Origin: Thermosipho sp. (in: thermotogales)
Lineage (GTDB): Bacteria; Thermotogota; Thermotogae; Thermotogales; Fervidobacteriaceae
Reading direction: 5' to 3'
Assembly (NCBI GenBank): GCA_017656345.1
Contig: JACDNZ010000017.1
Coordinates: 1-41,543 of the forward strand
DNA length: 41,543 nt
Under the pieces are notes generated by a model. The model was not told where the DNA came from. It saw only the letters and a list, made by a program, of their open reading frames with translations, and did not search any database. Within the stretch, counting starts at the first letter, position 1, and each line of letters starts with the position of its first letter. Shown here piece by piece: positions 33,258 to 36,990 of the stretch. The position numbers and the translations under genes were made by a program.

Positions 33258-35207
33258 TTGATATATTTCTTGATCTTTGGAGGGTTTTCCCTTCTTTTTG
33301 TTTTATTTCTAACTTATAAAGTTCTAGATTATTCATCCGGAAATGAAAAAACAATTGAATTATCAAAAATCATTCAAACAGGAGCAAAATCATTTCTCTT
33401 TCAAGAATATAAAGTATTTTTTCCTGTAATTTTTTTATTAGCTACATTACTTTCTATCACCATAAATTGGAAAGCCGGAATATCCCTTTTAATCGGTTCA
33501 ATCCTCTCTGTTACAGCTGGTTATGTTGGCATGACTATTGCAACAAAAGCTAATGCAAGAACTGCTTGGGCAGCAACAAAAGGACTAGGTGAAGCACTAA
33601 AAGTTTCTTTTTCTGGTGGAGCAATAATGGGATTAACTGTTTCCACATTAGGAATTATAGGTTTAAGTATTACATATTTCTTAACCAAAGACATTACCTT
33701 AATAAGTTTTTATTCTTTAGGTGCTTCTTTTGTAGCACTTTTTGCAAGAGTTGGTGGAGGTATTTACACTAAAGCAGCTGACGTAGGAGCTGATATCGTT
33801 GGTAAGACTGAAGCAAATCTTCCAGAAGATGATCCTCGAAACCCTGCTGTTATTGCAGACAACGTTGGAGACAACGTTGGAGATGTCGCTGGAATGGGAG
33901 CAGACTTGTATGAATCATACGTTGGTTCTATTTTTTCAGCTTTAGCACTTGGAACCTTTTATTTCAAAGAAAAAGGATTTTTTGCTGTTATATATATTAT
34001 AATTTTCGGTTTAATTGCATCGATACTAGGTATTATATACACTCTTTATAAAAGCTCAAAATCAAATAATCCTGCTAAAACTTTAAGAAAAGGTACAGCT
34101 TTTGCCAGTTTAATAACATTAACTTTGACTTTAATCTATAGTATATATATATCCTGGATCCAAATTTTTATTGTTACCTTAATGGGTATTATTGTTGGAG
34201 TTTCTATAGGATTAGTAACAGAATGGTACACTTCTGGCAAAAAAGTTATTAAATTAGCAAAAACTGCCATGATGGGATCTGCTAATGTCATTATAAGTGG
34301 TACAGCTTTAGGAATGGAATCAACATTTATCGTTACTTTATTGATTTCCACAGCCGTAATCTTATCATACAAACTCTTAGGGTTATTTGGGGTTGCTTTA
34401 TCGGGTGTAGGAATGCTTTCAACTTTAGGTATAAGCTTATCAGTTGATGCTTATGGTCCTATCGCCGATAACGCTGGAGGTATTGCGCAAATGGCTGGTC
34501 TTGATCCAAGCGTTAGAAAAATTACCGACCAATTAGACGCTGTTGGTAATACAACTGCAGCTATTGGAAAAGGATTTGCAATTGGCTCAGCAGCATTAAC
34601 CGCTCTTGCTCTTTTTTCAAATTTTAGTAATATCGCTAATTCTCAATCAGTACTTTTAAATAACCCATATTTATTTTTAGGTAGTCTAGTTGGCGCAATG
34701 CTACCTTTTTTCTTCTCAGCATTAACAATGCATGCAGTAGGTGATGCAGCTGATGAAATGGTTAACGAAATCAGAAGACAATTGAAAGAAATACCTGGGA
34801 TTTTAACTGGTCAAAACAAACCCGATTATCAAAAATGTATTCAAATAGCAACAAAAGGTGCTTTAAAAAAGATGGTATTACCAGCATTATTAGCTATTTT
34901 TTCACCAATAGCAATTTATTGTTTGTTTGGAACTACTGGGGTTGCTGGTTTATTAATTGGCTCCACAGTTTCAGGAGTTATGTTAGCAATATTTATGGCA
35001 AATTCTGGTGGTGCCTGGGACAATGCCAAAAAATATATTGAAGAAGGTCACTTTGGAGGAAAGGGATCATTCGCTCATAAAGCAACTATTGTCGGAGATA
35101 CTGTAGGTGATCCTTTCAAAGACACTTCAGGACCTTCAATAAACATTTTGATAAAACTTATGGCAATTACCTCTATAGTTTTGATAACTCTTATAAGGGG
35201 GTTATAA
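33258..35207 (+). CDS. hppA: Membrane-bound ion-pumping pyrophosphatase
   Basis: This 649-residue enzyme couples cleavage of pyrophosphate to pumping Na+ and/or H+. The catalytic segments GGGIYTKAADVGADIVGKTE, EDDPRNPAVIADNVGDNVGD, DVAGMGADLYESYVGS and the C-terminal GDTVGDPFKDTSGPS are intact. GNTTAAIGKGFAIGSAAL carries alanine at the position marking potassium-dependent members, as in the sodium-pumping T. maritima enzyme. At 649 residues it is shorter than that 726-residue relative, mostly in loops. TTG start with TAGGAGGTTGAG upstream. It lies one base before the phosphofructokinase-like gene. Confidence 0.93.
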   Translation: MIYFLIFGGFSLLFVLFLTYKVLDYSSGNEKTIELSKIIQTGAKSFLFQEYKVFFPVIFLLATLLSITINWKAGISLLIGSILSVTAGYVGMTIATKANARTAWAATKGLGEALKVSFSGGAIMGLTVSTLGIIGLSITYFLTKDITLISFYSLGASFVALFARVGGGIYTKAADVGADIVGKTEANLPEDDPRNPAVIADNVGDNVGDVAGMGADLYESYVGSIFSALALGTFYFKEKGFFAVIYIIIFGLIASILGIIYTLYKSSKSNNPAKTLRKGTAFASLITLTLTLIYSIYISWIQIFIVTLMGIIVGVSIGLVTEWYTSGKKVIKLAKTAMMGSANVIISGTALGMESTFIVTLLISTAVILSYKLLGLFGVALSGVGMLSTLGISLSVDAYGPIADNAGGIAQMAGLDPSVRKITDQLDAVGNTTAAIGKGFAIGSAALTALALFSNFSNIANSQSVLLNNPYLFLGSLVGAMLPFFFSALTMHAVGDAADEMVNEIRRQLKEIPGILTGQNKPDYQKCIQIATKGALKKMVLPALLAIFSPIAIYCLFGTTGVAGLLIGSTVSGVMLAIFMANSGGAWDNAKKYIEEGHFGGKGSFAHKATIVGDTVGDPFKDTSGPSINILIKLMAITSIVLITLIRGL

Positions 35208-35208
35208 T

Positions 35209-36219
35209 ATGAAAAGAGTTGGGATATTATGTATTGGTAATGATTCACCAGGTATAAACGCTGCTATTCGTTCTGCTGTTGTTAAAGGACTAGAGTTAAA
35301 TATTGAAATTATGGGGATAAAAGATGGCTTTGAAGGACTCTTTAATGATGAATTAGATGTCTTGTTAAGGCCAAATGTTTCAAATATTCTTCACAAAGGT
35401 GGTACAATTCTAGGTACCTCACTTTATGTTCCTGAAAACGAAGAAGTGAAAAAAATAAAAGAAAAAATGGAACAATACGGAATGGGCTCATTAATACTTT
35501 TAGGTGGAAGGCTTGCTGCAAAAGCTGCTCTGAATTTAATGAAAGAAAATATTCCTTCAATTTTAATACCAGCAACCATTGACAATGATTTGTCATTTTC
35601 AGATTTTTCAATTGGTTTTTTCACTGCTGTTGAACATGTTAAAAATGCATTGGATATTTTACACTCTACTGCTGAAGCACACCATAGAGTTATGATTGTT
35701 GAAACGATGGGAAAACCAAGCGGATGGATAGCGACAGTTGGAGGGCTTGCAGGTGGTGCTGATTATATCATTAGTTCCGCTGAAAAGATTGATTTTGATG
35801 AAATAATAAAAATCATTAGAAAGCGTTACGAAGGAAAAAAGAGATTTTCATTAATTGTAGTTGAAAGTGGTGTTCCAATTCCAGAGGAGATAAAAAAACA
35901 ATGTGGCTGCATTGAATCAGCTAACTCAGCCGAAATCATTGGGAAATTCATTGAAAAAAACTTAAAAGAAGAACTCGGAATTGAATGGAGATATACCAAC
36001 TTAGGATATCTCCAAAGAGGTGGTTCACCAACAGCAATGGATAGAATCATCGCAACACAAATGGCAGCTCATTCAATGGAAATGGTTAAAGCAGGGAAAA
36101 ACTATCACGCAATAGGCATTAAAGGTTTTTCTATTACCGAGGTTCCTTACACAGATACAATTATAAACTTTAAACCTGTTGAATTTTATTTGAGAGAACT
36201 TACAAAACTATTCTATTAA
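35209..36219 (+). CDS. Phosphofructokinase-family protein with altered nucleotide/Mg site
   Basis: This 336-residue protein is clearly a PFK homologue: NDSPGINAAIRSAV, KGGTILGTS, PATIDNDLSF with the catalytic Asp125, AHHRVMIVETMGKPSGW and LGYLQRGGSPTAMDR. The GGDGS loop that holds Mg-nucleotide is GGRLA (99-103), so the metal-binding aspartate is arginine, and the arginine of the usual GGTxLGTSR is Leu72. The sugar-phosphate side is largely kept. It may use another phosphoryl donor, serve a regulatory role, or be inactive. It follows the pyrophosphatase gene by one base, so a pyrophosphate link is possible but unproven. Confidence 0.8.
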   Translation: MKRVGILCIGNDSPGINAAIRSAVVKGLELNIEIMGIKDGFEGLFNDELDVLLRPNVSNILHKGGTILGTSLYVPENEEVKKIKEKMEQYGMGSLILLGGRLAAKAALNLMKENIPSILIPATIDNDLSFSDFSIGFFTAVEHVKNALDILHSTAEAHHRVMIVETMGKPSGWIATVGGLAGGADYIISSAEKIDFDEIIKIIRKRYEGKKRFSLIVVESGVPIPEEIKKQCGCIESANSAEIIGKFIEKNLKEELGIEWRYTNLGYLQRGGSPTAMDRIIATQMAAHSMEMVKAGKNYHAIGIKGFSITEVPYTDTIINFKPVEFYLRELTKLFY

Positions 36220-36228
36220 GGTGATATT

Positions 36229-36990
36229 ATGATTGTTTTCCTAACTGATTGGGGAAACTCGCATTATGTGGGAATTTGTAAAGGAGTTATCAAGCAAATT
36301 ACCGATTCTGAAATTATTGATCTTACACATGATATAAATTCATTTGACGTGAGAGAAGCTATGTATATTCTCTCACGTTCTTTTATACATTTTCCTAAAA
36401 ATACCGTTTTTCTTGCAGTCGTAGACTATGGTGTTGGTAGTAACAGGAAAGCAATTGCAGCAAAAACTAAAAATTATTATTTTGTAGGCCCCGATAACGG
36501 TTTATTCACTCTTGTTTTTGAACTAGAACCTCCTCTTGAAATAAGAGAATTAAATAATAAAAAATTTCATTATCTTAATTCCCAGACATTTCATGGAAGA
36601 GATATCTTTGCACCGGCCGCAGCACATATAAAAAATGGAAAGTTCAAACAGCTTGGAGACCTTCTACCAAATTATGCAACAATTCCATATATTAAAGCCA
36701 AAAAAACCAAAGAAAATAAAATTGTTGGAGAAGTTGCATACATTGATAAATTTGGCAACATTGAAACCAATATCCCTTTTGAATGGTTAGAAGAATTTAG
36801 TACTATAAAGCTAAAAAAAGGGAAAAAACTCATCAAAATACCCATTGGTAATTTTTATTCAGAAGTTTCTAAAGGAGAACTTATTGCACACAATGACAGT
36901 ACAGGTTATTTAGAGATAGCAGCAAATCAAAAAAAAGCAGATGAAATACTTAAGCTAAAATCTGGTGATTATTTGGAGTTGATATTATAG
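36229..36990 (+). CDS. SAM hydroxide adenosyltransferase-like protein (DUF62)
   Basis: This 253-residue protein belongs to the family that hydrolyses S-adenosylmethionine to adenosine and methionine. The proposed triad is present: Asp7 (FLTDWG), Arg73 (YGVGSNRKAI) and His122 (TFHGRDIFAPAAAH). Further marks are VGPDNGLF, IDKFGNIETN and AHNDSTGYLEIA. Some positions differ from the common pattern: DYGVG replaces DPGVG and GNSHYVG replaces the usual GxxDxYVG. ATG start with AAGGTGAT upstream. Its last codons overlap the start region of the ABC ATPase. Confidence 0.85.
   Translation: MIVFLTDWGNSHYVGICKGVIKQITDSEIIDLTHDINSFDVREAMYILSRSFIHFPKNTVFLAVVDYGVGSNRKAIAAKTKNYYFVGPDNGLFTLVFELEPPLEIRELNNKKFHYLNSQTFHGRDIFAPAAAHIKNGKFKQLGDLLPNYATIPYIKAKKTKENKIVGEVAYIDKFGNIETNIPFEWLEEFSTIKLKKGKKLIKIPIGNFYSEVSKGELIAHNDSTGYLEIAANQKKADEILKLKSGDYLELIL

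What the first reader, a model, noticed from the sequence alone, without database searches (positions are those of the whole stretch)
35209..36219. Phosphofructokinase homologue without the GGDGS nucleotide loop, one base from a membrane pyrophosphatase
Seen: GGRLA (residues 99-103) replaces GGDGS and Leu72 replaces the arginine of GGTxLGTSR, while the catalytic TIDND and the sugar-side QRGGSP remain. Known: that aspartate binds Mg of ATP or PPi in family enzymes. Inferred: either a new phosphoryl donor or a non-catalytic regulator. The adjacent hppA gene hints at pyrophosphate metabolism.
Basis: partly seen in the sequence, partly recalled or inferred. Interest (0 to 1): 0.62.

Follow-up and report, generated by a model that had tools for sequence, protein, structure and literature searches.

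The report
PFK-like partner of a pyrophosphate pump
A relative of the glycolytic enzyme phosphofructokinase that has lost its phosphate-donor site but kept its sugar-phosphate site is inherited together with one particular pyrophosphate-driven ion pump in several bacterial lineages, so it looks like a sugar-phosphate sensor or an altered enzyme tied to that pump rather than the ATP-phosphofructokinase that databases would call it.

Summary
The 336-aa protein has GGRLA (99-103) for GGDGS and Leu72 for Arg72; TIDND and QRGGSP are intact. It is not an error: orthologues in 49 of 103 Thermotogota genomes all lack an acidic residue there (GGR in two families, GHTG in a third) and evolve under strong purifying selection (median dN/dS about 0.04). 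They form one clade with D103-less relatives in a second phylum (GDRDT, GGFTS, GSFAT; support 100/97 with donor-site columns removed). The gene pairs with one short membrane-pyrophosphatase subfamily. In Thermotogota the two are present in exactly the same 49 genomes and adjacent in 48. The same pair sits side by side in the second phylum. Linked proteins have also lost Arg72 and Arg171 but keep Asp127, Arg162, Arg243 and Arg252. This resembles the eukaryotic PFK C-half, whose old F6P pocket became an effector site. Best reading: a non-catalytic sugar-phosphate-binding partner that ties the pyrophosphate pump to glycolytic state (0.5). Main rival: an enzyme with a rebuilt donor site (0.27). 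Physical contact, ligand and activity are untested. A new variant of a known kind; NCBIfam would label it ATP-PFK.

The parts
35209..36219 (+). PFK-like gene (called pfkX here), 336 aa
   Evidence: AF2 model pLDDT 92 with full PFK fold, Z 41.6 to 4i36
33258..35207 (+). hppA, short (649 aa) K+-dependent-type membrane pyrophosphatase, the paired gene
   Evidence: NF001957 1096 bits over cut-off 945; pump and pyrophosphate motifs intact, GNTTAA K+-dependence motif
35195..35201 (+). Shine-Dalgarno-like AAGGGGG inside the end of hppA; one base between hppA stop and pfkX ATG
   Evidence: read directly
35239..35241 (+). Asn11 (E. coli Gly11, first phosphate loop)
35422..35424 (+). Leu72 (E. coli Arg72)
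35503..35517 (+). GGRLA, residues 99-103, in place of GGDGS; Arg101 = E. coli Asp103
35575..35589 (+). TIDND, residues 123-127; Asp125 = E. coli catalytic Asp127
   Evidence: invariant in 41 sequences
35686..35688 (+). Arg160 (E. coli Arg162, sugar 6-phosphate contact from the neighbouring subunit)
   Evidence: invariant
35713..35715 (+). Lys169 (E. coli Arg171); K/R/A/G, D or G in hppA-linked relatives
36013..36030 (+). QRGGSP, residues 269-274; Arg270 = E. coli Arg252, sugar-phosphate contact

Best explanation
pfkX encodes a phosphofructokinase fold whose phosphoryl-donor half-site has been dismantled while the fructose-phosphate half-site, shared between subunits, is kept. It is produced with, and probably acts on, a dedicated short membrane pyrophosphatase encoded just upstream. 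The proposed mechanism: PfkX binds a sugar phosphate (F6P, FBP or a relative) and, free or bound, changes the activity of the PPi-driven Na+/H+ pump. Pyrophosphate would then be spared for the PPi-dependent PFK or spent on ion pumping according to glycolytic state. Shown: fold, loss of donor residues, retention of acceptor residues, purifying selection, co-inheritance and adjacency with this pump. Inferred: loss of kinase activity, sugar-phosphate binding, physical or regulatory contact with the pump, and the direction of the effect.
For: (1) HPPase-S (59% identity or more) and PfkX occur in exactly the same 49 of 103 Thermotogota genomes and are adjacent in 48; other neighbours differ between families. 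(2) Six loci of another phylum have the same pair 9-165 bp apart, and every PFK linked this way lacks Asp103. (3) One clade, 100/97, with donor columns removed; the HPPase-S proteins also form one clade. (4) In the linked lineages Asp103, Arg171 and the usual residue 72 are gone, whereas Asp127, Arg162 and Arg252 stay and Arg243 nearly always. (5) dN/dS about 0.04. (6) Precedents: the C-half of eukaryotic PFK lost its ATP pocket and its F6P pocket became an effector site (PMC12203962); PFK-1 binds V-ATPase and appears to match pumping to glycolytic flux (PMC6384264). (7) ATP-PFK is present in Thermotogota with and without PfkX, so the specific partner is the pump.
Against: The catalytic Asp127 is invariant in the whole clade, whereas the eukaryotic regulatory half lost it; a pure sensor need not keep it. 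The Caldiserica-type relatives (GDRDT) keep Arg72, Lys124, Arg171 and Asp129 and are not linked to hppA, so they may be enzymes. In that phylum some genomes have an HPPase-S-like gene without PfkX. Co-inheritance does not show contact. No co-expression, binding or activity data exist here.
Confidence: 0.5

Rival explanations
1. PfkX is a working enzyme with a rebuilt donor site: it transfers phosphate between a sugar phosphate and PPi, polyphosphate or another donor, with Arg (or His/Thr/Phe) in place of the metal-binding acid, and the pump supplies or removes the PPi.
For: Invariant Asp127 and nearly invariant Thr125. Catalytic PPi-PFK is co-encoded with a proton-pumping PPase in Methylococcus capsulatus and sulfur-oxidising symbionts (PMC4287430). 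Three of the pair loci are followed by a transketolase-type gene, a source of sugar phosphates. Caldiserica-type relatives keep the rest of the donor site.
Against: Arg171, conserved in the catalytic reference set, is K/R/A/G, D or G in linked lineages, and Arg72, Gly11 and the PPi lysine 124 are mostly gone; residues at 103 and 104 differ between lineages (R, H/T, F), unlike one newly selected donor site.
Confidence: 0.27
2. PfkX is a regulatory subunit that joins the cell's own ATP-PFK or PPi-PFK in hetero-oligomers, as the C-half does inside eukaryotic PFK.
For: The sugar site is built from two subunits (Arg162 and Arg243 come from the neighbour, general knowledge of E. coli PFK) and these residues are kept; the closest PDB sequences by phmmer include C-halves of human PFK.
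Against: PfkX is not seen directly beside an active pfk gene in the paired loci; its distribution follows one pump subfamily, while other PFKs are also present in lineages without PfkX. Identity to the own ATP-PFK is only about 35%.
Confidence: 0.13
3. A decaying PFK paralogue, or a sequencing error, with no function.
For: Loss of residues that are conserved in active PFKs.
Against: dN/dS about 0.04, full-length frames in dozens of genomes, conserved replacement motifs and conserved linkage.
Confidence: 0.02

Closest known systems
C-terminal regulatory half of eukaryotic 6-phosphofructokinase
   Same: PFK fold, donor pocket lost, F6P pocket residues kept; there the pocket is the fructose-2,6-bisphosphate effector site (PMC12203962)
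   Different: PfkX is a separate single-length protein, keeps the catalytic Asp of TIDND, and is tied to a membrane PPase rather than fused to an active PFK; descent from the same event was not tested
PPi-PFK / H+-PPase gene pair of Methylococcus capsulatus and symbionts
   Same: a PFK-family gene co-encoded with a membrane PPase (PMC4287430)
   Different: there the PFK is an active PPi enzyme; here GGDD and PKTIDND signatures are absent
Bacterial ATP-PFK (PfkA) / NCBIfam NF002872
   Same: fold (Z about 41), length, sugar site, over the NF002872 cut-off
   Different: no acidic residue at 103, no Arg171, no Gly11
PFK_mixed, TIGR02483 (PFK group III)
   Same: many of the nearest hits outside the clade are of this type and share GGTILGTS
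   Different: 269.9 bits against a cut-off of 430.55; those have GGDGT/GGDDT with PKTIDND
Membrane pyrophosphatase (Thermotoga maritima TmPPase, 4av3), for the partner
   Same: all pyrophosphate and pump motifs
   Different: short subfamily lacking four stretches of 11-22 residues found in the 723-aa Thermotogota type

Membership tests
Phosphofructokinase superfamily (PF00365) | profile match over cut-off and PFK fold | tested here: met
   291.7 bits vs 30.9; Z 41.6, rmsd 1.5 over 316 residues to 4i36_B
ATP-dependent 6-phosphofructokinase | acidic residue at E. coli position 103 (GGDGS; GGEGS in Thermotogota) | tested here: not met
   Arg in GGRLA; no acid at 103 in any orthologue
ATP-dependent 6-phosphofructokinase | Arg171 and Gly11 of the donor site | tested here: not met
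   Lys169 and Asn11 in the window protein
ATP-dependent 6-phosphofructokinase | catalytic Asp127 and F6P-binding Arg162, Arg243, Arg252 | tested here: met
   Asp127, Arg162, Arg252 invariant, Arg243 nearly so, in 41 sequences
ATP-dependent 6-phosphofructokinase | ATP:F6P phosphotransferase activity | not testable with these tools
   needs purified protein
PPi-dependent phosphofructokinase | GGDD and PKTIDND signatures | tested here: not met
   GGRL and PATIDND
PFK_mixed (TIGR02483) | score over the curated cut-off | tested here: not met
   269.9 vs 430.55 bits
NF002872 'ATP-dependent 6-phosphofructokinase' subfamily model | score over the curated cut-off | tested here: met
   296.3 vs 253 bits; also met by other D103-less members, so the name is misleading here
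Eukaryotic PFK C-half-like regulatory domain | donor pocket lost, sugar pocket kept | tested here: met
   residue level only (PMC12203962)
Eukaryotic PFK C-half-like regulatory domain | fused to a catalytic PFK half | tested here: not met
   free-standing 336-aa ORF
Membrane pyrophosphatase (partner gene) | full profile and intact PPi/ion motifs | tested here: met

The most novel reading that the evidence does not exclude
A PFK-derived pseudoenzyme is a dedicated sugar-phosphate-sensing subunit of a subfamily of PPi-driven ion pumps: an accessory or regulatory partner for membrane pyrophosphatases, which are otherwise known as homodimers acting alone.
Probability: 0.33. Interest if true: 0.82.

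Novelty: new variant of a known kind. Interest (0 to 1): 0.62.

Why it matters
Membrane pyrophosphatases are studied as self-contained homodimeric pumps, and how cells match PPi hydrolysis to metabolism is open. A co-inherited PFK-like partner with a surviving sugar site gives a directly testable link between glycolytic intermediates and a PPi-driven pump. It also corrects an annotation: these proteins pass the NCBIfam model named ATP-dependent 6-phosphofructokinase, so genome-scale models would give the cells an ATP-PFK that is probably not one. In four near-complete genomes of the family (G003, G004, G005, G010) the paired HPPase is the only membrane PPase found, and no full-length soluble family-I PPase was found in the family.

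Tried and rejected
Sequencing error or local mutation: rejected, same change in all orthologues. Coordinate-level search for a substitute acid in the metal site: not possible, since the model's coordinates are not exposed; by alignment no acid replaces position 103 in the linked proteins, although clade B has Asp at 171 and the Caldiserica type has Asp at 102 and 104. Wider survey: 12 genomes of other phyla carrying PFK_mixed relatives gave only GGDGT/GGDGS/GGDDT-type best hits among those read. Operon context for function: besides hppA no neighbour is shared between families. Papers on Thermosipho PFK and pyrophosphatase, pseudo-PFKs, or an HPPase-PFK link of this kind: none found in the held library; older subscription papers are not held. 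The letters at 101-104 in GHTG proteins are alignment-dependent by one position (His or Thr at 103); no acid either way.

Full report
OBSERVATION. The ORF at 35209-36219 (+) translates to 336 residues without interruption and matches PF00365 over nearly its whole length. Three further departures were not listed: Asn11 in the first phosphate loop (GND for GGD), Lys169 at the E. coli Arg171 position, and Tyr for His249. hppA ends one base before the ATG, and the pfkX ribosome-binding site lies inside hppA.

THREE PFKs IN THE GENOME. The window's genome has three PF00365 genes: a standard ATP-type PFK (L001; GGEGS, PGTIDND), a PPi-type PFK (L003; GGND, PKTIDND) and this one. Asp to Glu at position 103 is therefore normal in the Thermotogota ATP-PFK, but an acid is always kept there.

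NOT AN ACCIDENT. Among 103 Thermotogota genomes, 49 have an orthologue (a fiftieth match, G041, is a GGDDT-type PFK). The host families are f1 (Thermosipho and Fervidobacterium, by record titles), f2 (Pseudothermotoga-type) and f10 (unnamed). In f1 and f2 the motif is GGR and in f10 it is GHTG. No orthologue has an acid at 103. Close pairs give a median dN/dS of 0.04 (range 0.007-0.07, 20 pairs), against about 0.01 for the ATP-PFK: strongly constrained, slightly less than the enzyme.

A CLADE BEYOND THERMOTOGOTA. In a second phylum, reached through a Caldiserica MAG, D103-less relatives carry GDRDT, GDRSA/GDREA, GGFTS, GSFAT/GSFTT or GAFKY. A tree built without the 26 donor-site columns puts all of these with the Thermotogota proteins on one side of a branch (UFBoot 100, SH-aLRT 97, all of 200 bootstrap trees). 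With all columns the result is the same. Other D103 changes (GGNGS, GGNGT) fall elsewhere.

THE PUMP. The upstream gene encodes a 649-aa membrane pyrophosphatase with intact PPi- and ion-handling motifs and the GNTTAA motif of K+-dependent enzymes. It belongs to a short subfamily (here HPPase-S); the same genome has a second, longer, Thermotoga-type pump. In Thermotogota, HPPase-S at 59% identity or more occurs in exactly the 49 genomes that have PfkX and in none of the other 54, and the two genes are adjacent on the same strand in 48; in G072 both are present but about 0.89 Mb apart. Neighbours other than hppA differ between families: secD-secF upstream in f1, other genes in f2, mixed genes in f10. 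The genomes are related, so 49 is not 49 independent events, but absence of both from f3, in the same order as f1 and f2, fits joint gain or loss. In the second phylum, six fetched loci have an HPPase-S-like gene (50-53% identity) 9-165 bp upstream of a D103-less PFK (L262, L263, L266, L267, L270, L273; the gaps of L266 and L273 from the same call). In L263 and L270 the next gene has a Transket_pyr domain by Pfam, and L267 looks alike. The linked HPPases of both phyla fall in one clade away from the other HPPases. The link is not universal: in Caldiserica-type genomes both genes exist but apart, and a few have only the HPPase.

WHAT WAS LOST AND KEPT. Of 55 columns at least 95% conserved in 54 catalytic-type PFKs, the GGR proteins have lost 12, the GHTG proteins 12, and the GDRDT, GDRSA, GGFTS and GSF types 6-9. 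In every hppA-linked type, Asp103 is gone and Arg171 is lost or unreliable (K/R/A/G; D; G). Position 72 is L, K, V or T, and the 124 residue is Ala. Asp127, Arg162 and Arg252 are invariant and Arg243 nearly so. Because, in E. coli PFK, Arg162 and Arg243 reach in from the neighbouring subunit (general knowledge; the list of donor and acceptor contacts used here is also from general knowledge of the E. coli enzyme), their survival implies an oligomer with an intact sugar-phosphate site. The AlphaFold2 model (pLDDT 92.1, pTM 0.89) is a complete PFK subunit.

MECHANISM. Three facts must be explained together: the donor side is gone, the acceptor side is kept, and the gene travels with one PPi pump. 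The simplest model is a sugar-phosphate-binding partner that sets the activity of the pump. There is precedent for each half. The C-half of eukaryotic PFK lost its ATP pocket, and its old F6P pocket became an effector site (PMC12203962). PFK-1 binds the V-ATPase, and yeast data suggest that it tunes proton transport to glycolytic flux (PMC6384264). In a cell that also has a PPi-dependent PFK (L003), such control would decide whether PPi is used for glycolysis or for pumping. The main rival is an enzyme with an altered donor, supported by the invariant Asp127 and by the known co-encoding of active PPi-PFK with H+-PPase (PMC4287430). The hetero-oligomer rival is weaker, because other PFKs are present with or without PfkX. 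All functional steps are inference; nothing here shows contact, ligand or activity.

NAMES. NCBIfam would name PfkX 'ATP-dependent 6-phosphofructokinase' (NF002872, 296 vs cut-off 253), and likewise the GHTG, GDRDT, GGFTS, GSFAT and GDRSA proteins. For at least the hppA-linked ones this name is probably wrong.

Noticed in passing
L001:1366-2325 (-) and most Thermotogota ATP-PFKs: The standard ATP-PFK has GGEGS, not GGDGS: Glu replaces the metal-binding Asp in most of the Thermotogota ATP-PFKs read.
   Followed up: partly
L263, L267, L270: In a second phylum the HPPase-S/PfkX pair is followed within about 20 bp by a gene with a transketolase pyrimidine-binding domain (Pfam shown for L263 and L270, similar by eye in L267), suggesting a pentose-phosphate link.
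   Followed up: partly
L257, L260, L264, L265: Unlinked D103-less PFK-like genes sit directly behind two PmbA/TldD-type genes (Pfam on L257, by eye in the others).
   Followed up: no
L269:4998-6970 (+): Two PFK genes overlap head to tail, one GGDDT/KTMDND (PPi-like) and one GGNGS/STIDND, in a genome that also has PfkX.
   Followed up: no
G076:C1:2017183-2019111; G002:C1:1629066-1630453: A second membrane PPase gene carries an internal TAA in two genomes (in G002 it is also in fragments), while HPPase-S is intact.
   Followed up: no
family f1, 20 genomes: No full-length soluble family-I pyrophosphatase was found, only weak partial matches, so membrane PPases may be the main PPi sink (family II not tested).
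   Followed up: partly
L153:10836 onward: A very divergent GGDDT PFK lies about 4 kb from PfkX in one Pseudothermotoga-type genome (long branch).
   Followed up: no
L216, L217, L218: Three genomes of family f9 carry another short (655-662 aa) HPPase, only 43-44% identical, with no PFK next to it.
   Followed up: no
window 36229-36990: A SAM hydroxide adenosyltransferase gene (PF01887/PF20257) follows pfkX by 9 bases in Thermosipho-type genomes, not in the other families looked at.
   Followed up: no
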